A stretch of 64,000 nucleotides of DNA from Vicinamibacterales bacterium. Lineage in GTDB: Bacteria > Acidobacteriota > Vicinamibacteria > Vicinamibacterales > Fen-181. The stretch's first letter is position 1, and every line of letters starts with the position of its first letter. Position numbers and translations under genes: made by a program. The stretch is from assembly GCA_036504215.1 (NCBI GenBank), contig DASXVO010000046.1, forward strand, positions 62,001 through 126,000, read 5' to 3'. The notes under the pieces are model-generated. The model saw only the letters and a list, made by a program, of their open reading frames with translations, was not told the DNA's origin and ran no database searches. This document shows, piece by piece, positions 35,260-58,414 of the stretch.

Positions 35260-35616
35260 ATGCCCGCACCATCCATCGAGACGTTCGCCAACCCGAACCC
35301 CGGCCGCGATTACGAAATCGCGATCCAATGTCCCGAGTTCACGTCGGTCTGCCCGAAGACAGGACTGCCCGACTTCGGCGAGATCCGCATCACCTACGTG
35401 CCGGACCAACGGTGCATTGAACTGAAGGCTCTCAAATATTACCTGATCGAGTTCAGAAACAAGGGGATTTTCTACGAATCGGTCACGAACCAGATTCTCG
35501 ACGATCTCGTCGCGGTCTGTTCCCCGCGCCGCATGACCGTCGTCGGCGACTTCACGCCGCGCGGTGGAATCAAGACCGTGGTCACGGTGAAGTACGAGAG
35601 AGCCGGGAACGGATGA
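35260..35616 (+). CDS. queF: NADPH-dependent preQ0 reductase QueF
   Basis: A 118-residue tunnel-fold enzyme that reduces the nitrile of preQ0 to preQ1 in queuosine synthesis. The catalytic Cys is in [12 protein letters not shown], and the NADPH-binding QueF motif appears as ELKALKYYL (canonical E-S-K-S-x-K-x-Y-x), followed by the conserved FRNKGIFYE. The size fits the short, single-domain (YkvM) type. It is convergent with the S74 protein gene, 6 bp apart. No other que gene is in the window. Confidence 0.95.
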
Positions 35617-37719: not shown

Positions 37720-37912
37720 ATCGTGTGGTGTATCGGCAGGTCGCAAGAGTTCCGTGAGGGCAGGGGGGCAGCGCGGCAACCTGGTCGACAGAGGTTGCGC
37801 CCGCTCATGCTGTCGAGCTGGCTGCGCACGACGGGGAGGCTGCGCTAAGATACCCACCGAACGCAGGTTCCGCTCCTCGCCGATGCGAGGAACAGGCAGG
37901 CGGCGACTCGAG

Positions 37913-38185
37913 ATGGACGACGAATTTCGCATTCCGATCGAGGACACGCTCGACCTGCATCCGTTCGCCCCACGCGACGTCGTGTCGGTCGTGGACGAGT
38001 ATCTCCGCGCGGCGCATGGTGCTGGGCTTCGCGAAGTACGGCTGATTCACGGTCGGGGTCGCGGCGTGCAGCGTGGTCTCGTCCAGGCCGCGCTCGAGCA
38101 CCATCCGCTCGTCGAGGAATTCTGGGACGCTCCCGATGCCCACCTCGGCGCAACGATCGCCAGGCTCGACGCCGGCGAGCGATAG
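37913..38185 (+). CDS. Smr-domain protein
   Basis: A 90-residue single-domain protein resembling the Smr domain of MutS2. The landmarks are DTLDLHPF (D-L-H), VDEYLRAAHGAG and the LIHGRGRGVQRG loop (H-G-x-G). Stand-alone Smr proteins are often endonucleases that cut stalled-ribosome mRNA or DNA, but this one cannot be assigned. The ATG at 37913 is favoured; an in-frame ATG at 37883 would add ten basic residues. Confidence 0.82.
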   Translation: MDDEFRIPIEDTLDLHPFAPRDVVSVVDEYLRAAHGAGLREVRLIHGRGRGVQRGLVQAALEHHPLVEEFWDAPDAHLGATIARLDAGER

Positions 38186-47490: not shown

Positions 47491-49566
47491 CTATTCCCTG
47501 ACCCACCGGTCCATCCACGTGATGAACTCGTGATACCACAACGCGCTGTTTGCAGGCCTGTTGATCCAGTGCCCCTCGTCCGGGAGGTAGACGAGCCGTG
47601 ACGGCACGCCCTGCCGCTGCAACGCGGTGAACAACTGCAGTCCCTCGCCGATCGGCACGCGGAAGTCGAGCTCGCCGTGCGTCACCAGCGTGGGCGTCTT
47701 GAAGTTCCTGGCGTAGGTGTGCGGCGAGAGCCTGGCGTAGAGATCCGGGTTCGTCCAGGGCGTGCCTTTCAAATCCCATTCCGGGAACCACAGCTCCTCG
47801 GTGACGCCGTACATGCTCGTCAGATTGTAGACGCCGGCGTGCGTGACGATCGCTTTGAAGCGTGTCGTGTGACCAAGGAACCAGTCCATCATGTAGCCGC
47901 CGAATGACGCGCCCGCTGCTCCCGTCCGACCCCTCTCGACGTACGGCAGCGCCTCGGCGAAATCAGCGCCTTTCATCAGGTCCTCGTAGACCATGCCCGC
48001 CCAGTCGCCGCTGATCTCGTCGGTGAACTGCTGGCCAAAACTCGTGGACCCATGCGGGTTCGGCATGAACACCACGTAGCCGGCGGCGGCAAAGACCTGT
48101 GCGTTCCAGCGGAACGTCCAGCCGTCGTGCCACGAGTTCTGCGGCCCGCCGTGCACGAGGTAGAGCAGAGGGTACTTCTGCCCCTCCTTGAAGCCGGCCG
48201 GCTTCACCACCCACGCCTGGATCTTCGCTCCGCCAGCACCCTCGAACCAGACATTCTCACCCGGGCGAAGCCTGAACGCGGCAAGAGCAGGATTGGTGGA
48301 GGTCACCTGGCGGACCCCCTGCAGGACCTGTCCTTTGGCGGCCGTGAGCGGTGCGCTGAACACCTCGGCGGGAGCCGCCAGGGTCGTCTGGCTGAACACG
48401 AGCGTCCGCCCGTCGCCCGACACCTGGAGGTCGCCGTTCGACCCCGAACGGAGGATCGGCAGGGGTTCACCGCCTGCCAGGTCCAGCCGGAAGATGTCAC
48501 TGCGCCCCTCGTTCTCCGCGGTCAGGTAGACCGTCTTCGAGTCCGGCGCCCACACGTAACTGTCCGCCGATCGGTCCCACGACGCGGTGATCGACCGGTG
48601 TTCGCCGGTCTTGCGGTCGTAGAGCATCAACTGCCAGCGGTCCGCCTCGAAGCCCGGTCGCTGTTGAGCCCGGTAGGCGACGTAGCGGCCATCAGGCGAG
48701 TAGGCAGGACCGCCGTCGGCGGCCGGGTTGGTCGTGATCTTCTTCGGCTTCGCCGCCGGATCGGCAAGGTCCAGGAGGAACAGGTCGCTGTTGGTGCTGA
48801 TCGACTCCATCGGGTCCGTCTTGCGGGCGAAGGCCAGTTCCTTCGAGTCCGGCGAGAAGGCGTAGTCGTCCGGGCCGCCGAGCGAGAACGGAGGCACATC
48901 CGCCTCGCCCGGCGTCACATCGCGGGGCGCGGCGGATCCATCCGAAGGGATGAGGAAGATATGGCTGAACTTCCCTTCCTTCCACGACACCCAGTGCCGG
49001 AACATCAGGCGGTCGGCCACGCGGGCCCGGCTCTTCCGGTTGTCGAATTCCTTCACCTTCTGAGCGTTGCACTCGTTGGTCGTGCACTCCGGGTAGACGT
49101 CCGAGCCGAACGCCATCGACTTGCCGTCCGGCGACCACGTGACGCCGCCTGCTTCGGTGCCCAGGCTGGTCAGCTTGCGCGGCTCGCCGACAGGTCCGAT
49201 CGGGCCCATGTCCACCACCCAGATCTGAGAGCCGCCGTCGCGCGTGGAGATGAACGCCAGTTTCGTGCCGTCCGGTGACCAGCGCGGCGTGTCCTCGCCC
49301 TGCTCGGAGCGGACGATCGAGATCGCCTCGCCTCCGGCAACGGGCACGAGCCAGATGTGATTTCGCCGGGCGTTCTTCTCGAGACTGACGTCGGTCACCA
49401 CGTAGGCGATGCGACGGCCGTCCGGAGACAGGCGCGGATCGGAAACGCGCCTGAGCTTCAACATCTCCTCGACGCTGAAGGGCGGCGCGGAGGTCGACTG
49501 CGCCGCGACCAGAGGCGCACCGAGGGCCAGCAGGACTGCCGACGCCAGGAGCGGACGAACTCGCAT
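47491..49566 (-). CDS. Exported S9-family prolyl oligopeptidase-like serine peptidase
   Basis: A 691-residue peptidase. A signal peptide (LLASAVLLALGAPLVAAQ) precedes a WD/PD40 beta-propeller (about 30-430, with units such as LSPDGRRIAYVV and WSPDGTKLAFIS) and an alpha/beta hydrolase domain (about 430-691). The catalytic Ser is in GAAGASFGGYM, the Asp in GELDFRVP and the His in DEGHWI. It fits the dipeptidyl-peptidase/acylaminoacyl-peptidase branch. The start at 49566 is set by the signal peptide, the longer frame being spurious. The divergent gap 49567-49784 has no gene. Confidence 0.92.
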   Translation of the reverse strand: MRVRPLLASAVLLALGAPLVAAQSTSAPPFSVEEMLKLRRVSDPRLSPDGRRIAYVVTDVSLEKNARRNHIWLVPVAGGEAISIVRSEQGEDTPRWSPDGTKLAFISTRDGGSQIWVVDMGPIGPVGEPRKLTSLGTEAGGVTWSPDGKSMAFGSDVYPECTTNECNAQKVKEFDNRKSRARVADRLMFRHWVSWKEGKFSHIFLIPSDGSAAPRDVTPGEADVPPFSLGGPDDYAFSPDSKELAFARKTDPMESISTNSDLFLLDLADPAAKPKKITTNPAADGGPAYSPDGRYVAYRAQQRPGFEADRWQLMLYDRKTGEHRSITASWDRSADSYVWAPDSKTVYLTAENEGRSDIFRLDLAGGEPLPILRSGSNGDLQVSGDGRTLVFSQTTLAAPAEVFSAPLTAAKGQVLQGVRQVTSTNPALAAFRLRPGENVWFEGAGGAKIQAWVVKPAGFKEGQKYPLLYLVHGGPQNSWHDGWTFRWNAQVFAAAGYVVFMPNPHGSTSFGQQFTDEISGDWAGMVYEDLMKGADFAEALPYVERGRTGAAGASFGGYMMDWFLGHTTRFKAIVTHAGVYNLTSMYGVTEELWFPEWDLKGTPWTNPDLYARLSPHTYARNFKTPTLVTHGELDFRVPIGEGLQLFTALQRQGVPSRLVYLPDEGHWINRPANSALWYHEFITWMDRWVRE

Positions 49567-49784
49567 GAAAGCCTCCAGATGAAGGGCGACAAACGGGGAG
49601 TATAGCGTGTCGGCACGGGAGATGCGCCAGCGCAGGTGGGTTCTGCGCCCGGTCCACGACGTGTGTCGCGCGATCGTCGCAAGAATGCTGGCCTTTTCCA
49701 ACCGGGTTGACAGTCGCGACGGGCCTTTGCGCCCAACGGCGGACGACAAAGCGTGGCTGGAAATGCCGTCCGAGGCGGAGAACG

Positions 49785-52328
49785 ATGTGGCAAGAACTGC
49801 ACGACGCGTCGCCTGGCAGCGCAGTTGAGGCACGAGGGGACCGTTGGCGCGTGATCGACGTGGATCGGTACGACGACTGCGCCGTCTGCCGGGTGCTGGG
49901 CACGACCGCCTCCAATCGTGGCGTCGAGCGGTCGCTCCTGCTCCCATTCGACCGCCTCCGACCCGGCAACCGCCCTGCGCGACTTCGCCGGATCGGCCGT
50001 CGCCGCTGGATGCTCGCGCTCCGCGCACTGAGCGTGGATTTCGAGGCGCGAGGAGGTCTTCGGGGTGCGGCGTTCGCGCGGCTGACGCTCATCGACTACC
50101 AGCTCGAGCCGGCGCTCGCGTGCGCCCGCGGCGCCACGCGCGTCCTGATTGCCGATGAGGTTGGCCTTGGGAAGACGATCGAGGCTGGCTTGATCCTGGG
50201 CGACATCTGGGCTCGCACGAGTTCTCCGCGTGCACTCGTGGCGGCACCCGCAGGCCTGTGCCAGCAGTGGGTCGAGGAACTGCAGGATCGCTTTCGCCTG
50301 CCGGCCGTGCTCGTTGACGCCGGCGAACTCCGACGAGCCTCGCGACTGGCGGCGCCGGACGACAGTGTGTGGGCGCGGATCCCGCTGGCCGTCGTGTCGA
50401 TTGATTTCGTGAAGCAGCCGGAAGTGCTTCACGGGCTCGCGGCCGTGCGGTGGGATCTGCTCGTCGTGGACGAAGCGCACCTGGCCGCGATGGCACGGGA
50501 GCGGGCCGCCGCCGTTCGCTGGCTCGCGCGGCGCGCGCGCCGGGTCGTGCTGCTGACCGCGACACCACACCCCGGCGAGCCTGGTGCGTTCGAGGCCCTG
50601 GCGGAGATCGGCCGCCTGCCCGCCGATCAGCCGATGGTGATGTTCCGACGGACTCGGCTCGACCTCGGGTTCACAAATGCCAGGCACGTGCGGATCCTGT
50701 CGGTTCGCCTGTCGCCGGTCGAGACACGAATGCATGCACTTCTCCATCGGTACTGCTCGAAGGTCTGGAGGGAGACGGACGGGCAAGGCGCCAACCCCGA
50801 CGCGCGACTGGCAATGATTGTTCTCGGCAAGCGGGCATCATCCGGCGCGGCGTCGCTCGCGATATCGCTCGATCGTCGTCTTCAGGCGCTGTCGTCCGGG
50901 CCTGATGCGGCCGGCTGGCAACCGTCCCTCCCTCTTGCGGCGGAGGACGAAGACTGCAGCACGGCCGACGAGGATCCGACGTCGGTGCTCGCGGCGCCGG
51001 GGCTGTCGGATCGGCAGGCCGAGAAGCGGATGCTCCAGCGGCTGCTCGATCTCGCCCGCGAGGCGGTCCGGTCCGACAGCAAGGAACGCCGGCTCGGCCG
51101 CCTCCTCCTGCGCATCACCGAACCAGCCGTCGTCTTCACCGAGTACCGCGACACGCTGGAGCGGCTCGCACGCGTCCTGTCGGAGCACGCGAGTTTGGCC
51201 GTGCTCCACGGCGGCCTCGACGCGCGAGCGCGGAACGACGCGGTGCGGGCATTTGCCGAGGGCCGGGTGCGGGTGCTCCTCGCAACCGACGCGGCGGCGC
51301 ACGGCCTGAACCTCCATACGCGGTGTCGGCTCGTCGTCAACCTCGAGTTGCCGTGGAATCCGGTACGTCTCGAGCAGCGGATCGGGCGCGTCGATCGCAT
51401 CGGCCAGTCGCGGACGGTGCATGCCGTGCACCTGGTCGCGGCGGGAACGAGCGAAGAGCAGGTCCTCGCGCGATTGGTGGTCCGACTCCACCGCGCGAGA
51501 GAGGTGCTCGGCACCGCAAGTTCGCCCCTCGGCCACCTGACCGAATTCCAGGTGGGCGAGCACGTCATGACGGGCGCGGGAACGCCGCCTGACAGGCTCG
51601 ACGTCGGTGAGACGTCGACCGTTCGTTCGCCGTTCGCTGACCGGGCCGCCTCGGCGCATGGCGGCGTCCGCCGTCTCGACCTGCGGGTCGAAGCACGCGC
51701 CGAGGTCGCGAGGCTGAAGCAGGTTCGGGAGTTGGCTCGAGGACCGCGCCCCGAACCGTCCCGCGTGTCGGATCTCGAGGGCGTGCTGTCCGATCTCGGC
51801 CCGTCGGGCGCGTGGTGGACCGTGCTGCGCCGCCGAGACTTCGTCGCGGGTCTTCTGCCATGTGTGCTCTGTCTGCACCGCGTGCAGGTGGTGGACGGCG
51901 CGGGGCGGATCGCGGAAAGACTCCTCGTGCCGATCCGTATCGATGTTCCGATCGACGCGCTTCGGACGGTTGCGGTCAATCGCGGTGCTCTCCGCGCGCT
52001 GCTCGATGCGGCGCGCGACACGCTGTCGGCCGCCGCGCGTGCGTGGGTCGAGCGGTACCTGGACGCCGGACGTGAATCGCTTCGTCTGGCGGTCGCGCCG
52101 TTGTGCGCCCGACAGATCGAGATCGCTCGCGTCGCGGATGCGACGCCGGTGGTCGCGCTCCAGCCCGGCCTGTTCGATCGGCGCGCGCTGAAGTCGGCCG
52201 ACCGCGATGAGGCGCTGCGCCGGCGGAGCGAAACCGACGACGACGCCCGGCTGTCTGCCCTGACGCGCGCGACCGACCTCTCCCTCGCCGGCCCACCGGC
52301 CGTGCTGCTGGTGGCCGTGGTGACCTAG
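49785..52328 (+). CDS. SNF2-family DNA helicase/translocase, likely defence module component
   Basis: An 847-residue SWI2/SNF2 ATPase. An N-terminal region (1-100) is followed by the helicase core: LIDYQL (Q-like motif), Walker A ADEVGLGKTIEA (Gly127-Thr131), motif II VVDEAHLA (229-232), the TATPHPGEPG motif III, and lobe 2 with VVFTEYRDTLERLARVL, LLATDAAAHGLN and motif VI RIGRVDRIGQ (about 530). A helical C-terminus of about 250 residues has no recognised nuclease. Architecture and size resemble HepA/RapA and DISARM DrmD. The ATG at 49785 gives the family N-terminus; earlier codons lack support. The methyltransferase follows 49 bp later. Confidence 0.88.
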   Translation: MWQELHDASPGSAVEARGDRWRVIDVDRYDDCAVCRVLGTTASNRGVERSLLLPFDRLRPGNRPARLRRIGRRRWMLALRALSVDFEARGGLRGAAFARLTLIDYQLEPALACARGATRVLIADEVGLGKTIEAGLILGDIWARTSSPRALVAAPAGLCQQWVEELQDRFRLPAVLVDAGELRRASRLAAPDDSVWARIPLAVVSIDFVKQPEVLHGLAAVRWDLLVVDEAHLAAMARERAAAVRWLARRARRVVLLTATPHPGEPGAFEALAEIGRLPADQPMVMFRRTRLDLGFTNARHVRILSVRLSPVETRMHALLHRYCSKVWRETDGQGANPDARLAMIVLGKRASSGAASLAISLDRRLQALSSGPDAAGWQPSLPLAAEDEDCSTADEDPTSVLAAPGLSDRQAEKRMLQRLLDLAREAVRSDSKERRLGRLLLRITEPAVVFTEYRDTLERLARVLSEHASLAVLHGGLDARARNDAVRAFAEGRVRVLLATDAAAHGLNLHTRCRLVVNLELPWNPVRLEQRIGRVDRIGQSRTVHAVHLVAAGTSEEQVLARLVVRLHRAREVLGTASSPLGHLTEFQVGEHVMTGAGTPPDRLDVGETSTVRSPFADRAASAHGGVRRLDLRVEARAEVARLKQVRELARGPRPEPSRVSDLEGVLSDLGPSGAWWTVLRRRDFVAGLLPCVLCLHRVQVVDGAGRIAERLLVPIRIDVPIDALRTVAVNRGALRALLDAARDTLSAAARAWVERYLDAGRESLRLAVAPLCARQIEIARVADATPVVALQPGLFDRRALKSADRDEALRRRSETDDDARLSALTRATDLSLAGPPAVLLVAVVT

Positions 52329-52375
52329 GCCACCGAGGTCCTCCGACCTCCGCGGCCTCTGCGGGCTTGGTGGCC
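52328..52375 (+). promoter_or_regulatory. Structured intercistronic element between helicase and methyltransferase
   Basis: GGCCACC (52328-52334) pairs with GGTGGCC (52369-52375). Enclosed is a 6-bp hairpin GAGGTC-CTCC-GACCTC (52335-52350) and a possible shorter CGC/GCG stem, together resembling a three-way junction. The 3' outer arm holds GGTGG, the only Shine-Dalgarno-like sequence for the ATG at 52378, and the 5' arm begins at the helicase stop codon (52326-52328). The arrangement suggests translational coupling. Confidence 0.5.
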
Positions 52376-52377
52376 CT

Positions 52378-55300
52378 ATGCTCCCTGGCGTTTCCGGCAC
52401 GCTGGTATCGGAGTACTTCCTCGAGGAGATCCTGCCCGTGCTGTTTGCGGGCCGCCTCGGTGAGAGCACGCGTGCCCACGGCTGGCGCAGCCTCGTCCGC
52501 TGGCAACGCGACCGCGGCCGGCTGCTCGGGCCGGTCAGCAGCGCACGCGTGGTGTTCGACACGGCCGCCATACCTGTGGCCGCGACCCTTGGGTTTACCG
52601 CGGGCCCCGCAGCGCCGATTCCGCGCGCGGATCTCATCGTCGCGCCGCTGCTGGCGGATGACTCGATCCGCCTGCTGCTCGTAACAGCGGCGTGGTCACA
52701 GGACCTGGAACAGATCTGGCGCACGAGTATTCGTCATGGCCTGGCTGCCGGGACCAGGTGGTGCGTCTGCACGAACGGGCGCAGCCTGCGGCTCGTTGAC
52801 GCGCGCGCCACCCACGCGCGCCGTTTCGTGCAGTTCGACCTCGACGCTGCGATCGACGACGAGCGGAGCATGGCGGCGCTCTGGGCACTGCTTGGCGCAG
52901 ACACTTTCCTGGTCCAGGAGACCGGTGCGTCGGACCACCGCCGCATCGATGAAGCGGAGTCGTCCGGCGACATCTCCCTGATCGAACAGGTCGTTGCCGC
53001 GTCGGCCCGCCACACGGTTGGCGTCTGTCGGTCGCTGAGACGCGGGGTCCTCGAGGCGCTTGGCGAGCTGCTGTCGGACTTTGCCGGCTGCACCCGCAAC
53101 CCGCACACGACACCTGGACCCGATCTCGACGCCATTCACGAACAGGCATTGACCGTCGTCTACCGGATCCTGTTCCTCCTGTTCGCCGAATCGCGGAGCC
53201 TCGTTCCGGTGTGGCACCCGGTGTACCGCGACAGCTACTCGCTCGAGGCGGCGCGAACTCTCGCCGAGCGGCCCGGCCCCGCTCGTGGTCTGTGGGAGAC
53301 GCTGCAGGCCATTTCCCGGCTCGCGCACAACGGGTGCCGCGCTGGCGACCTGCGCGTGACACCGTTCAACGGTCGCCTGTTCGCGCCCGCGTCGACGCCG
53401 CTCGGCGAGCACGGTCGCGTGAGCGACGAGTCGGCGCGGAGGGTGGTGCTGGCGTTGTCCACGGCGCCGGGGCGATCGGGTGCGGCCCGGGCGCGCATCG
53501 TGTATCGCGACCTGGGCGTCGAACAGCTTGGTGCGGTGTACGAAAGCGTACTCGACTACCGTCCGCGCCTCGAGCCCGACACGGCTCCAGCGCCAGCGCG
53601 CGCACCGAACCGCCGACTGCGAGGTGGAGTGCGGGTGCGCCTCGAGCCGGGCGGCCGGACGCGCAAGGCCACGGGCACGTTCTACACGCCGCGATCGATT
53701 ACCAGCCACCTGGTGCGGCAGACGCTCGAGCCGCTCGTCGCGCACGCGACGACCGAAGACATCCTCCGCCTCCGGATTGTCGATCCCGCGATGGGCAGCG
53801 GCGCCTTTCTGGTTGCCGCCTGTCGGTTCCTCGCCGCCGCGTACGAGGCGGCGGTCATCGAGGGCGGCGGTTGCCAGCCGAACGATGTGTCGGACGAGGA
53901 TCGCCGTGGGTTCAGGCGCCTGATCGTGCAGCGGTGCGTGTACGGCGTGGACCGAAATCCGGTCGCCGTCCAGCTTGCGCGGCTCTCGCTGTGGTTGACG
54001 ACGCTCGCACCCGATCGGCCGCTGACGTTCCTGGATCACCACCTGCGCGTCGGTGACAGCCTCGTCGGTGCATCGCTCGACGACCTGCGGCGATGCCCGC
54101 CCGGTTGCGCCGGAAGAGCGGAGCGGTCTGGCGATGTCGGCGGCCGGCTGCCTCTGTTCGGCGACGAGCCGACGGGGCCTGACATCCGGGCGGTCTGGCC
54201 GGATCGCGACCGCGTTGCCGCGCTGCCGGACGACACGTTGGCGATCGTGCGGGAGAAGGAGAGGCTTCTCGGCGCCATGGCGGGCGAGGCCTCGCCGCTG
54301 GCGCGGTGGAGAACGCTGGCGGATCTCTGGTGCGCGTTCAGCTTCATGGATCGCCGCGTCACTGATGGCGGCCGCCTGTTCGGTGCGCTGGCGGATCAGG
54401 TCCTGCGCGGGCGCCCCTCCCTGCCGTTGGCGCTGTCCGCGTCCCGGCTCGACGAGGCGCGCGAGGCCGCGCGGCAGCGTCGATTCTTCCACTGGGTGCT
54501 CGAGTTCCCTGAGGTGTTCTTCTCCGCCGACGGGACGCCGCTGGCGCGGCCGGGGTTCGACGCAGTGATCGGCAACCCTCCTTGGGACATGGTGCGCGGC
54601 GACGACCGCGACGCGGCTGCCCGCAGGGGGGGCAAGGTGGAGAGCGGCCGGCTCCTTCGCTTTGCCCGCGACTCCGGGCTCTACCGGGCGCAGGGCGCGG
54701 GTCACGCGAATCTGTACCAGTTGTTCGTGGAACGTGCCGTCCGGCTGGCCAGGGACGCCGGACGGATTGGCCTTGTCGTGCCGTGGGGGCTGGCCGCCGA
54801 TTCCGGGTGCGCGCCCCTGCGCCGCCTGCTGCTCGATCGCTGTCGCGTCGATTCACTCATCTCCTTCGAGAATGCCAACGCGATCTTCCCGATTCATCGC
54901 AGCGTGCGTTTCCTGGTCTTCACGGCCAGCACGGGCGGACGGACCGACGCCATTCCCTGCTGGCTGGGGCAACGGGATCCGGCGGTCCTCGATGCGATTG
55001 GAGAGGGCCCGAGCGGATCCGGACCTCGGTGGCCGTTCATCGTCACCCGCGGCCTGCTGCAGCGGGTGTCAGCGGACGATCTCGCGATTCCCGACCTGCG
55101 GACGCGGCTGGATCTCGAAATCCTCGAACGCGTGGCGCACGCGTTTCCGTCCCTTGCGTCCCGTGACGGGTGGGGCGTCGAGTTCGGCCGCGAGTTGAAC
55201 GCCAGCGACGACCGCCCGCACTTCGACAGCAGCCCAGAGGGTCTTCCGGTGCTGGAGGGCAAGCATCTCCAACCGTTTCGCGTGGTCGTGCCGGCGGACG

Positions 55301-55827
55301 GCGCTCGTATCGCCGCAGCAGCCGCACATCGACTGCTCCGCCAGTCCCCCACCTTCGGCAGGCCGCGGCTGGCCTATCGTGACGTCGCGAGCGCGACGAA
55401 CAGGCTGACGCTCATCGCCGCGATCGTTCCTGGCGGGTGCGTGACGGTGCACACACTGTTCTGTGCGCGAACGCCGCTCAGCGACGAGGACCAGCAGTTC
55501 CTGTGCGGTATGTTCAACAGCCTGATGGCGAACTACCTCGTTCGGCAACGCGTCACCACGCATGTGAGCGCCGGCATCATCGCCCGGTTGCCCGTGCCTG
55601 GACCCAGCGTCGCGTCGCCCCAACGACACCGGATTGCGTCGCTCGCGGCCCGTTTGTCGACAAGCCGTGAGCCGGAAACCGACGCGGCGTACGTGCAATT
55701 GCAGGCTGAGGCGGCGGCGGTCTATCGGGTGACGGCGGCGGAACTCGAGCACATCCTCGGTACGTTTCCGCTGATCGACGCTGCCATCAGACGTCAAGTC
55801 GCCGACGCGTGGGCTGATCTCCGCTGA
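52378..55827 (+). CDS. Eco57I-like N6-adenine DNA methyltransferase (type IIG/DrmMI-like)
   Basis: A 1149-residue gamma-order adenine methyltransferase. The SAM-binding motif I is DPAMGSGAFLVAACRF (about 467-480), preceded by GTFYTPRSIT. The acidic motif VYGVDRNPVAVQLARLSLWL and the catalytic NPPW (IGNPPWDMVRGD, about 730) follow. The C-terminal third resembles a target recognition region (LEGKHLQPF, FLCGMFNSLMANYLV). Residues about 85-140 look like a PD-(D/E)xK-type fold (ADLIVAPLL, RLLLVTAAW, CVCTNGRSLRLVDA), but the E-x-K pair is replaced by T-A. It pairs with the SNF2 helicase upstream; the start codon is preceded by GGTGG within the coupling structure. Confidence 0.87.
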   Translation: MLPGVSGTLVSEYFLEEILPVLFAGRLGESTRAHGWRSLVRWQRDRGRLLGPVSSARVVFDTAAIPVAATLGFTAGPAAPIPRADLIVAPLLADDSIRLLLVTAAWSQDLEQIWRTSIRHGLAAGTRWCVCTNGRSLRLVDARATHARRFVQFDLDAAIDDERSMAALWALLGADTFLVQETGASDHRRIDEAESSGDISLIEQVVAASARHTVGVCRSLRRGVLEALGELLSDFAGCTRNPHTTPGPDLDAIHEQALTVVYRILFLLFAESRSLVPVWHPVYRDSYSLEAARTLAERPGPARGLWETLQAISRLAHNGCRAGDLRVTPFNGRLFAPASTPLGEHGRVSDESARRVVLALSTAPGRSGAARARIVYRDLGVEQLGAVYESVLDYRPRLEPDTAPAPARAPNRRLRGGVRVRLEPGGRTRKATGTFYTPRSITSHLVRQTLEPLVAHATTEDILRLRIVDPAMGSGAFLVAACRFLAAAYEAAVIEGGGCQPNDVSDEDRRGFRRLIVQRCVYGVDRNPVAVQLARLSLWLTTLAPDRPLTFLDHHLRVGDSLVGASLDDLRRCPPGCAGRAERSGDVGGRLPLFGDEPTGPDIRAVWPDRDRVAALPDDTLAIVREKERLLGAMAGEASPLARWRTLADLWCAFSFMDRRVTDGGRLFGALADQVLRGRPSLPLALSASRLDEAREAARQRRFFHWVLEFPEVFFSADGTPLARPGFDAVIGNPPWDMVRGDDRDAAARRGGKVESGRLLRFARDSGLYRAQGAGHANLYQLFVERAVRLARDAGRIGLVVPWGLAADSGCAPLRRLLLDRCRVDSLISFENANAIFPIHRSVRFLVFTASTGGRTDAIPCWLGQRDPAVLDAIGEGPSGSGPRWPFIVTRGLLQRVSADDLAIPDLRTRLDLEILERVAHAFPSLASRDGWGVEFGRELNASDDRPHFDSSPEGLPVLEGKHLQPFRVVVPADGARIAAAAAHRLLRQSPTFGRPRLAYRDVASATNRLTLIAAIVPGGCVTVHTLFCARTPLSDEDQQFLCGMFNSLMANYLVRQRVTTHVSAGIIARLPVPGPSVASPQRHRIASLAARLSTSREPETDAAYVQLQAEAAAVYRVTAAELEHILGTFPLIDAAIRRQVADAWADLR

Positions 55828-55903
55828 AGCCCGCCCCTCTTTGGCCCGGCAGCACGGCCGCGACGGCGGCGGCACCGAGGGGCGTCCTCACGGCCAGCTC
55901 GAC

Positions 55904-56248
55904 TCAGGCAAGCACGACGGCCATCAGGACCGCCAACTGGTCGCCGTCGTTGCGAACGCTGTGAGTTTCACCGTTCCCGGTCAGCATCGCATCTCCGGCT
56001 TCGAGACAGGTATCGACGCCGTTGTCCGTGGCCGTCAGCCGGCCGCTCAACAGGTAGTAGATTTCCGCATCGGGTCCGTGCGCGTGCACCCCGATCGACT
56101 GACCCTTCTCCAGGTTCAGGAGGGCGCAGAGGTTCACCTTCCCGAAGCACTCGCTCTTCTCGAGCAGGTTGATGCAGCGGATGGTGCCGTCACCGCCGCG
56201 GATCTGGTCTCGCATCTCGATGCGCATGTCCTGTTGTCTCTTGATCAT
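55904..56248 (-). CDS. Small cupin-domain protein
   Basis: A 114-residue single-domain cupin. Motif 1 is IGVHAHGPDAEIYYLLSG, with two His and a Glu for metal, and motif 2 is GETHSVRNDGD with the third His. GGGGAG lies just before the ATG at 56248. A role as a sugar-nucleotide or small-molecule binding protein is possible, but nothing around it decides. It begins a minus-strand run but is separated from DUF1634 by 116 bp. Confidence 0.85.
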   Translation of the reverse strand: MIKRQQDMRIEMRDQIRGGDGTIRCINLLEKSECFGKVNLCALLNLEKGQSIGVHAHGPDAEIYYLLSGRLTATDNGVDTCLEAGDAMLTGNGETHSVRNDGDQLAVLMAVVLA

Positions 56249-56364: not shown

Positions 56365-56661
56365 TTACAGTAGCGCCACGACCAGGCTGCCGAGCAGGAT
56401 GGCCAACACCGTCGTGGTGAGAGCGAAGAACGGCCAGTCGCGTTCCAGGACGTATTCGGCGACCGAGATCACCACGCGCCCAACCGGCGTGGCCATCAGG
56501 ACCAGCAAGCCCGCCGTGGTCAGGAGGCCGGCCAGGCGGGCATTCCCGCCAGCCAGTTGAAGCACGAGGCCGACCGCAAGCAGCGTGGTGCTGGTCGTCA
56601 CGCCAATCCGCAGCACACGGCCCAACCACCGTTCGAGTCGTCCGACGTCTGGAGCGATCAT
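56365..56661 (-). CDS. DUF1634-family membrane protein
   Basis: A 98-residue protein with three predicted helices (GVTTSTTLLAVGLVLQLAG, LAGLLTTAGLLVLMATPVG and FFALTTTVLAILLGSLVVAL). DUF1634 proteins are commonly encoded next to TSUP permeases, and here the start overlaps the TSUP stop by one base (TGATG). It is likely an accessory subunit of that transporter. Confidence 0.85.
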   Translation of the reverse strand: MIAPDVGRLERWLGRVLRIGVTTSTTLLAVGLVLQLAGGNARLAGLLTTAGLLVLMATPVGRVVISVAEYVLERDWPFFALTTTVLAILLGSLVVALL

Positions 56662-57491
56662 CACGACTTCACCAGCATGAGCATCGAGACAGCCACGAGG
56701 ACGGCCGCCAGCAGGATCTTCAGCCATTTGGCGCGAGCCCTGGCGCCGACCGCGAAGCCAGCCCGGGATCCGACCATGACGCCGAGCACCGTGGCCGCCG
56801 CCATCCACGCGACGACCTCACCGCGGCCGTAGTAGATCACCGCGCCAGCGGTGGCCGTCACGCCAATCATGAACGCGCTCGTGGCCGCCGCGGCCCTCAT
56901 CGGCACTCCGCACCAGATGTTCAGCGCCGGGACCTTGAGGATGCCGCCGCCCAACCCGAGGAGCGACGAGACGCTCCCGGCCACGAACGACACGACCATC
57001 GCCAGCGGCACCCGCCTGACCTGGTACGAGACCACTGCGCCGCTCTCGGCTTCGTAGTACCGCCCGCCGAGCCGGCCGGGATCCGCCGCAGGGTCGAGAA
57101 TCACGTTTCGTCGCTCGAGCCGCGTCAGCATGGCGACCGCAGAGAGCATGGCGACGATCCCGAACAGGCGTTCGAGCGTCGGTGTCGAGAGCGAGGCTGC
57201 GGTGATGCCGCCGGCGAGACCGCCAGCGGTGGTCGCCACCTCGAGCAGCATGCCGAGCCGGAGATTCACCAGGGAGCGGCCCAGCCGGCCGGAGGTGACC
57301 ACGCTCGAGGTCGCGATGACGGTGGTCAGGCTGATGCCGACCGCCAGCCGCATGGGCAGATGGAGCACCAACACCAGGAACGGGACGAGAAAGACGCCAC
57401 CGCCAAGACCGAGGAGTGCGCCGAGCACGCCCGCACCGCCGCCTGCCAGGAAGAGTACGGTCACGAGGAATGGCGAGATGTCCGGCATCAC
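56661..57491 (-). CDS. TSUP-family permease (TauE/SafE-like)
   Basis: A 276-residue membrane protein with about eight helices in two repeats. The Gly-rich signatures GVLGALLGLGGGVFLVPFL and SVSSLLGLGGGILKVPALN, one per repeat, are characteristic of the sulfite/organosulfonate exporter family. The start is either GTG at 57491 (overlapping the panE stop as GTGA) or ATG at 57488. The substrate is probably a small sulfur- or carboxyl-containing anion. Confidence 0.92.
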   Translation of the reverse strand: MMPDISPFLVTVLFLAGGGAGVLGALLGLGGGVFLVPFLVLVLHLPMRLAVGISLTTVIATSSVVTSGRLGRSLVNLRLGMLLEVATTAGGLAGGITAASLSTPTLERLFGIVAMLSAVAMLTRLERRNVILDPAADPGRLGGRYYEAESGAVVSYQVRRVPLAMVVSFVAGSVSSLLGLGGGILKVPALNIWCGVPMRAAAATSAFMIGVTATAGAVIYYGRGEVVAWMAAATVLGVMVGSRAGFAVGARARAKWLKILLAAVLVAVSMLMLVKS

Positions 57492-58414
57492 TGCGGGGTG
57501 CCGAACTCGAAGGGCTTCAGCACGCCGTACAGCGTCGCCATCACCGGCGTATCGATCGCCGCGGCGCGGCCGCGCCGGATCACGGTTCCGACCAGCGCCT
57601 GGAGCTCCAGCGGTCTGCCCGAGACGAGATCGACCATCATCGACGACCGCATGGTCGCCGGGCTGTTGTCCATGTACCGCATCTTCTGTTCCCGGACGTC
57701 GTCGGCCACCGCGACGCCGGCGTGGCGCGCAAGCTGCTCGACCTCGCCCATCGCGCGGTGGAACGCGTCACGGAACGCCGGCTGTGCCCAGGCGGGACCA
57801 ACCGCCAGCCGGGCCGCAGCCGTCAGCGCCGCGACTGGGGCGAGGAAGATGAACTTCTCCCAGATGGGGATGCGGCTGTCGGCGGCGGCTTCCGACTGGA
57901 TGTCCGCTCCGGCCAGCACCTCGTGGACGCGCGAGACCCTTTCGCTGATCACCCGATCGCCGGCTGCTTCGCCAAACACGATCCGACGAACCGTGCCGAC
58001 GTGTTCGATCTCGCCTGGCGCGGTCAGCGTGGCGCCGATGTACGTGGCGCCGGCGAGAACGTGCCCCGCGCCCACGACCGCCGCGACCTCGTCGGCGCTG
58101 TCCACGCCGTTCTGCAGCGTCAGCACGGCCGTGTCCGGACCGACGAGGGGTGGCAGCAACAGGAGCGCCTCGCGGTTCGAATACGTCTTCACGGCGAGGA
58201 TCACGAGATCGACCGCGCCGACCAGGGCCGCGTCGGCTTCGGCCCGGGCCGCGACCACGAAGTCACCGAGCTGGCTTCGAACGCGCACGCCTCGCTCACG
58301 AACAGCCCGGAGGTTTGTTCCACGCGCGATGAACACGACCTCGTGCCCCGCCTGCGCGAGCCGCCCGCCGTAGTAGCCCCCGACCGCACCTGCGCCGACA
58401 ACCGCAATTCGCAT
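57488..58414 (-). CDS. panE: 2-dehydropantoate 2-reductase
   Basis: A 308-residue NADPH enzyme of the ketopantoate reductase family. It opens with the Rossmann motif IAVVGAGAVGGYYGGRLA and carries the conserved Lys in WEKFIFLAPVAALTA and the C-terminal SSMMVDLVSGRPLELQAL segment with the substrate-binding Ser. The expected reaction is ketopantoate to pantoate for coenzyme A, although the family includes other 2-keto acid reductases and no other pan gene is present. It lies 9 bp after the AspA/AstE-like gene and overlaps the TSUP gene. Confidence 0.88.
   Translation of the reverse strand: MRIAVVGAGAVGGYYGGRLAQAGHEVVFIARGTNLRAVRERGVRVRSQLGDFVVAARAEADAALVGAVDLVILAVKTYSNREALLLLPPLVGPDTAVLTLQNGVDSADEVAAVVGAGHVLAGATYIGATLTAPGEIEHVGTVRRIVFGEAAGDRVISERVSRVHEVLAGADIQSEAAADSRIPIWEKFIFLAPVAALTAAARLAVGPAWAQPAFRDAFHRAMGEVEQLARHAGVAVADDVREQKMRYMDNSPATMRSSMMVDLVSGRPLELQALVGTVIRRGRAAAIDTPVMATLYGVLKPFEFGTPQ

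What the first reader, a model, noticed from the sequence alone, without database searches (positions are those of the whole stretch)
49785..55827. Two-gene SNF2 helicase plus Eco57I-type methyltransferase module without DISARM core
The 847-residue SNF2 translocase and 1149-residue gamma-order adenine methyltransferase match in type, order and size the DrmD and DrmMI pair of class 1 DISARM. The genes that follow are a cupin, DUF1634 and TSUP, and those before are peptidases: drmA (DUF1998), drmB and drmC (PLD) are absent on both sides. The recently described Hma (helicase-methylase-ATPase) has a third ATPase gene that is also absent. A stand-alone pair, with tight coupling between the genes, may be a minimal restriction-like or epigenetic system. 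It is the best candidate in the window for an undescribed defence system.
Basis: partly seen in the sequence, partly recalled or inferred. Interest (0 to 1): 0.75.

Follow-up and report, generated by a model that had tools for sequence, protein, structure and literature searches.

The report
Order-wide helicase–methyltransferase pair without effector
Two coupled genes, a DNA motor and a DNA-methylating enzyme, look like the modification half of the known anti-virus systems DISARM and ARMADA, but in one order of soil bacteria they lack the attack half and have been passed down at the same chromosomal address, so the pair may be an immune module turned into a standing part of the genome.

Summary
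The pair is real: a RapA-like SNF2 motor (49785-52328, 847 aa) and an Eco57I-type adenine methyltransferase (52378-55827, 1149 aa), both with intact motifs. It is not a stray DISARM fragment. It occurs once per genome in 97 of 162 Vicinamibacterales genomes (Acidobacteriota), at a fixed address between queF and TSUP/panE, and its trees track RpoB (Mantel r 0.84 and 0.88). Some genomes without it keep remnants at the same site. DrmA occurs in only 2 of 162 genomes. Of 31 more distant pairs, 28 carry a third gene, a YprA-family helicase-nuclease, which makes them the recently described ARMADA (PMC12458937). That gene is missing beside the pair here, and no homologue was found in the window's genome. 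In the methyltransferase tree the Vicinamibacterales proteins form their own lineage beside ARMADA and DISARM, and protein ends that could contact the missing partner are less conserved than in ARMADA. Best reading: an effector-less, vertically inherited derivative of the ArmAB/DrmD-DrmMI module, probably doing motor-assisted genome methylation. A retained immune role, perhaps with a partner encoded elsewhere, is nearly as likely. No function was tested.

The parts
49785..52328 (+). SNF2/RapA-like translocase of DrmD/ArmA type, 847 aa
   Evidence: PADLOC DrmD 1.4e-83; NCBIfam DISARM_DrmD 314 bits, below its cut-off of 610; AlphaFold model pLDDT 81.6, RapA the best Foldseek match
50154..50177 (+). 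Walker A, residues 124-131 (DEVGLGKT)
   Evidence: D124, V126, G127, G129, K130, T131 invariant in 26 helicases
50469..50480 (+). Walker B DEAH, residues 229-232
   Evidence: invariant in 26 helicases
51375..51407 (+). helicase motif VI QRIGRVDRIGQ, residues 531-541
   Evidence: Q531, R532, G534, R535, R538, G540, Q541 invariant
52161..52184 (+). conserved short motif QPGLFDRR in the divergent helicase C-terminal region, residues 793-800
   Evidence: L796 and F797 invariant in 26 rows, Q793 in most; role unknown
52378..55827 (+). Eco57I-type adenine-N6 methyltransferase of DrmMI/ArmB type, 1149 aa
   Evidence: PADLOC DrmMI 1.9e-104, Pfam Eco57I; model pLDDT 86.3, matches CamA and PglX/BrxX
52462..52893 (+). 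N-terminal region of the methyltransferase (about residues 29-172), alpha/beta layout resembling a PD-(D/E)xK nuclease without a conserved E-x-K motif
   Evidence: predicted secondary structure and no conserved acidic/lysine motif in 27 homologues; the resemblance is inferred
53782..53808 (+). SAM-binding motif I DPAMGSGAF, residues 469-477
   Evidence: D469, M472, G473, S474, A476 invariant in 27 proteins
54574..54585 (+). catalytic motif IV NPPW, residues 733-736
   Evidence: invariant in 27 and in 35 proteins
35260..35616 (+). queF, upstream landmark of the conserved address (not part of the system)
   Evidence: Pfam QueF; upstream on the same strand in 68 of 69 genomes with both on one contig
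56661..57491 (-). TSUP permease, downstream landmark
   Evidence: Pfam TauE; conserved neighbour
57488..58414 (-). panE-like ketopantoate reductase, downstream landmark
   Evidence: Pfam ApbA; downstream on the opposite strand in 37 of 37 genomes with both on one contig

Best explanation
The pair is a vertically inherited, effector-less derivative of the helicase-methyltransferase module shared by class 1 DISARM (DrmD-DrmMI) and ARMADA (ArmA-ArmB). Shown by sequence: intact motor and methyltransferase motifs, strict linkage, a fixed chromosomal address, co-inheritance with RpoB, purifying selection in the closest pair compared, and no YprA-family helicase-nuclease in the operon. Inferred: the adenine-N6 methyltransferase methylates a sequence motif across the host chromosome, and the RapA-like motor moves on or remodels DNA so that it can act. 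Without its attack component the module now mainly marks the genome (epigenetic or self-marking) instead of destroying DNA.
For: 97 of 162 genomes of the order have the helicase, once each. Where queF shares a contig with it, queF is upstream on the same strand in 68 of 69; panE is downstream on the opposite strand in 37 of 37. Several genomes without the pair keep queF and panE there, and three genomes have pair remnants at that site. RpoB against helicase and methyltransferase trees: Mantel r 0.84 and 0.88; helicase against methyltransferase 0.96; 0 of 2000 permutations reach any of them. dN/dS in the closest pair is about 0.25 and 0.18. Of 31 more distant pair loci, 28 have a third gene, a DEAD helicase with MZB and a DUF559 nuclease-like end in the one examined; the window's genome has no match to it at E 1e-20 and only 6 of 97 pair-bearing genomes do. 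DrmA is in 2 of 162. The methyltransferase tree makes the Vicinamibacterales proteins one clade (0.98) outside ARMADA and DISARM. At matched core identity the methyltransferase N-terminus (0.30 against 0.48) and the helicase C-terminus (0.21 against 0.33) are less conserved than in ARMADA. Close structural relatives of the methyltransferase include CamA, an orphan methyltransferase.
Against: No methylation or phenotype was measured. The closest sequence relatives with a tested function are defence systems. In ARMADA type II all four genes are needed for defence (PMC12458937), but that does not show what two genes alone do. The pair has been lost several times, so it is dispensable. The predicted target-recognition region gives no signal that separates domesticated from defensive enzymes. 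Pairwise comparisons share sequences and are not independent.
Confidence: 0.45

Rival explanations
1. It is still an immune system: the pair marks self DNA and the motor interferes with unmarked DNA directly, or recruits a partner encoded elsewhere, for example the housekeeping YprA/MrfA helicase.
For: The closest relatives with tested function are defence systems (PMC12458937, PMC9142583). The motifs of both enzymes are intact. A MrfA-like YprA helicase is in 90 of 97 pair-bearing genomes against 35 of 65 others.
Against: Vertical inheritance at a fixed site is unusual for restriction-type systems; about 4% of them were in core genomes within species (PMC4176335). MrfA is retained in genomes that lost the pair (G391, G449, G014), and the association is confounded by phylogeny and assembly completeness.
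Confidence: 0.4
2. It is a decaying remnant of ARMADA or DISARM that has lost its effector and is on the way out.
For: Remnants and clean losses in several lineages; helicase split or interrupted in a few genomes.
Against: Catalytic residues invariant across the order, dN/dS well below 1, 68 of 100 high-quality genomes keep it.
Confidence: 0.1
3. It is the detached half of the drmABC cluster on contig C60 of the same genome and works with it as DISARM.
For: The genome carries drmA, drmB and drmC homologues at C60.
Against: C60 has its own methyltransferase next to drmC; DrmA is in only 2 of 162 genomes.
Confidence: 0.04

Closest known systems
ARMADA (Bell et al. 2025, PMC12458937)
   Same: RapA/BrxHII-like helicase (ArmA) directly upstream of a PglX-like methyltransferase (ArmB), same order and coupling
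   Different: ARMADA has the YprA-family helicase-nuclease ArmC (plus ArmD in type II), and the systems tested lie in islands derived from mobile elements; here ArmC is absent and the locus is fixed and vertical
DISARM class 1 (DrmD-DrmMI with drmABC)
   Same: DrmD and DrmMI are the best profile matches; L207 and L208 show such a pair beside drmA and the DUF1998 gene
   Different: no drmABC; helicase scores about half of NCBI's DrmD cut-off; separate clade in the methyltransferase tree
Hma (PMC8565338)
   Same: helicase plus methyltransferase
   Different: Hma has a third ATPase and other families; a complete Hma sits elsewhere in this genome (C40)
Orphan adenine methyltransferases such as CamA
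   Same: vertical conservation, adenine-N6 methyltransferase fold; structural match Z 26.3, rmsd 4.4, 497 aligned
   Different: CamA has no partner motor; its conserved regulatory role is from general knowledge, not tested here

Membership tests
DISARM | drmA, drmB (and drmC) with drmD-drmMI in one locus | tested here: not met
   none seen around the pair; DrmA in 2 of 162 genomes, in this one on another contig
DISARM | DrmD above the NCBIfam cut-off | tested here: not met
   314 bits against 610
ARMADA | ArmA-like helicase followed by ArmB-like methyltransferase | tested here: met
   helicase upstream of the methyltransferase in the loci that span both
ARMADA | YprA-family ArmC helicase-nuclease in the operon | tested here: not met
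   not found beside the pair in the order; no match in the window's genome at E 1e-20; 6 of 97 pair-bearing genomes have one
ARMADA | anti-phage activity | not testable with these tools
   needs phage challenge
Hma | HmaA-HmaB-HmaC profiles | tested here: not met
   HmaA matches weakly (173 bits) and HmaB is not among the 25 families listed for the methyltransferase; true Hma at C40 scores 1717, 1528 and 993 bits
Type IIG restriction-modification | active PD-(D/E)xK nuclease fused to the methyltransferase | tested here: inconclusive
   N-terminal layout resembles one but no E-x-K is conserved in 27 homologues; activity not testable
Orphan epigenetic methyltransferase | vertical conservation across a clade | tested here: met
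Orphan epigenetic methyltransferase | genome methylation that changes gene expression or a phenotype | not testable with these tools
   needs a methylome and a deletion

The most novel reading that the evidence does not exclude
A third lineage of the DISARM/ARMADA helicase-methyltransferase module has become a core, vertically inherited, motor-assisted genome-methylation system in a bacterial order, without any effector.
Probability: 0.4. Interest if true: 0.75.

Novelty: new variant of a known kind. Interest (0 to 1): 0.6.

Why it matters
Restriction-type systems turn over fast; about 4% were in core genomes even within species (PMC4176335). A DISARM/ARMADA module kept at one address across an order gives a direct way to ask whether immune modules become domesticated, and whether the helicase-methyltransferase half has an activity of its own. 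Both questions could be tested in a cultured relative.

Tried and rejected
Smr gene next to queF as a third component: it follows queF in genomes without the pair too. Hypervariable target-recognition region as a sign of restriction: its identity does not set the pair apart from ARMADA, so uninformative. drmABC in trans: too rare. Sigma-70 promoter and terminator scan of 49300-56000: nothing found. First genome-contig scan with the single protein found no relatives; the alignment-based scan did. Lists of structural matches are dominated by the motor and methyltransferase cores, so absent families there mean nothing. Literature searches for the pair in Acidobacteriota or Vicinamibacterales found nothing relevant.

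Full report
Observation. PADLOC's best models are DrmD (279.7 bits) and DrmMI (348.7 bits). NCBI's DISARM_DrmD model gives 314 bits against a cut-off of 610, so the helicase is related to DrmD but not accepted as one.

Distribution. A scan of 396 genomes of the phylum found methyltransferase relatives at 41-58% identity in 28 other genomes, some split across contigs, all in the same order, plus a short remnant in G391; matches beyond the order are far weaker. In 162 genomes of the order the helicase is present, once each, in 97, and in 68 of 100 high-quality genomes. A profile-guided scan of 84,980 species genomes kept 80 loci. About 43 of them match at 37-62% identity, from records titled Acidobacteria, Vicinamibacterales, Luteitalea and the like; a few titles name other groups, such as Acidimicrobiia and Gemmatimonadaceae. 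The rest match at 34% or less.

Fixed address. The helicase lies upstream of the methyltransferase in the loci that span both, and in many relatives the genes overlap by 4 nt. Of 69 genomes with queF on the same contig, 68 have it upstream on the same strand, 55 of them within 6 kb. Of 37 with panE on the same contig, all have it downstream on the opposite strand. In the window, queF is 14 kb upstream. Contig sharing depends on assembly, so orientation and order are the stronger part of this test.

Losses. Of the pair-less genomes I fetched at this place, all have queF and several have panE next to it. Three genomes carry remnants: a methyltransferase C-terminus in L060, a helicase stretch in L090 and a 45-residue helicase stretch in L079. 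Others (L076, L077, L078, L080, L086) show no match to either gene there. I did not identify every gene at the emptied sites, so replacement by other systems is not excluded.

Vertical inheritance and selection. Trees of RpoB, helicase and methyltransferase for 22 genomes give Mantel correlations of 0.84 (RpoB-helicase), 0.88 (RpoB-methyltransferase) and 0.96 (helicase-methyltransferase), with 0 of 2000 permutations reaching any of them. A few well-supported splits conflict with RpoB, so occasional transfer or tree error is not excluded. In the closest pair compared, dN/dS is 0.142/0.57 = 0.25 for the helicase and 0.108/0.61 = 0.18 for the methyltransferase; in the other pairs synonymous sites are near saturation.

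What is missing. Of 31 more distant pair loci with readable flanks, 28 carry a third gene, mostly about 1500-1900 aa. In L161 it has a DEAD helicase, MZB (DUF1998) and a DUF559 nuclease-like end. The three without it are L062, a full DrmD-DrmMI pair, and two Thermus loci, of which L183 ends soon after the methyltransferase. The third gene matches the description of ARMADA's ArmC, and the pair that of ArmA-ArmB (PMC12458937). The window's genome has no match to the L161 protein at E 1e-20. In the order 17 genomes do: 6 of the 97 with the pair and 11 of the 65 without. In G116 the ArmC match and a second set of methyltransferase matches lie together on contig C42, apart from the fixed-site pair on C104. 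DrmA is in 2 of 162 genomes.

Lineage. In a methyltransferase tree with ARMADA and DISARM references, the 35 Vicinamibacterales proteins form one clade (support 0.98), separate from both. The helicase tree also makes them one group, but with support 0.58 only.

Protein anatomy. Walker A, Walker B, helicase motif VI, the SAM motif and NPPW are invariant across the aligned relatives. The models match RapA (Z 22.4, 580 aligned) and, for the methyltransferase, CamA (Z 26.3, 497 aligned) and BrxX (Z 25.2, 670 aligned). The methyltransferase N-terminus has a PD-(D/E)xK-like layout without a conserved catalytic motif. By eye I saw none in the four distant relatives printed either, so the lack is probably not specific to this lineage.

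Relaxed ends. At core identity of about 0.5 the methyltransferase N-terminus averages 0.30 identity here against 0.48 in ARMADA. The helicase C-terminus averages 0.21 against 0.33, and 0.25 against 0.42 in the next bin. This fits loss of a partner that touched those ends, but alignment gaps and non-independent pairs weaken it.

Split helicase. Seven loci with a short helicase ORF were checked. In four (L124, L125, L143, L149) the helicase ORF ends near residue 602-624 and a second, overlapping ORF of about 203-250 codons follows, ending just before the methyltransferase. The printed ends of L125 and L149 include QPGLFDRR; the printed ends of L124 and L143 do not show the motif, and I did not look at the rest of those ORFs. 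The other three differ: L128 gave no forward ORF in the gap, L129 only one of 42 codons, and L145 (helicase ORF 576 aa) several of 172-201 codons in different frames, none clearly a continuation. So in some relatives the C-terminal part appears to be a separate gene; assembly or sequencing errors were not excluded.

Other systems in the same genome. Contig C40 has a complete Hma (1717, 1528 and 993 bits). Contig C60 has drmA, drmB and drmC homologues followed by a methyltransferase and a DUF5677 gene. A MrfA-like YprA helicase on C17 is widespread in the order: 90 of 97 pair-bearing genomes and 35 of 65 others. The association is confounded by phylogeny and assembly, and the three remnant genomes keep it.

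Verdict. The structural and evolutionary claim (an effector-less, vertically inherited relative of ArmAB/DrmD-DrmMI) is well supported. What it does is inference: motor-assisted genome methylation is my first choice, a retained immune role a close second.

Noticed in passing
G000:C40, L074:8097-19498: Complete Hma system (HmaA, HmaB, HmaC at 1717, 1528 and 993 bits) in the window's genome.
   Followed up: partly
G000:C60, L075:1942-10574: drmA-drmB-drmC-methyltransferase cluster followed by a DUF5677 gene, a DISARM-like locus apart from the pair.
   Followed up: partly
L062:4815-13727 (G088): Full-length DrmD and DrmMI followed by a UG19 reverse transcriptase; no match to the DrmA model PDLC02576 in that genome at E 1e-50.
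   Followed up: no
L124, L125, L143, L149: Helicase ORF ends near residue 602-624 and an overlapping ORF of about 203-250 codons follows before the methyltransferase; QPGLFDRR is visible in the printed ends of L125 and L149 only. L128, L129 and L145, checked the same way, did not show this.
   Followed up: partly
window 37907-38167 (+): Match to a small Smr-like gene downstream of queF; it accompanies queF in genomes with and without the pair.
   Followed up: yes
L063:1800-19901 (G058): Two DrmD-like helicases and a methyltransferase in one cluster, with a DruE/YprA-like gene running off the fetched stretch.
   Followed up: no
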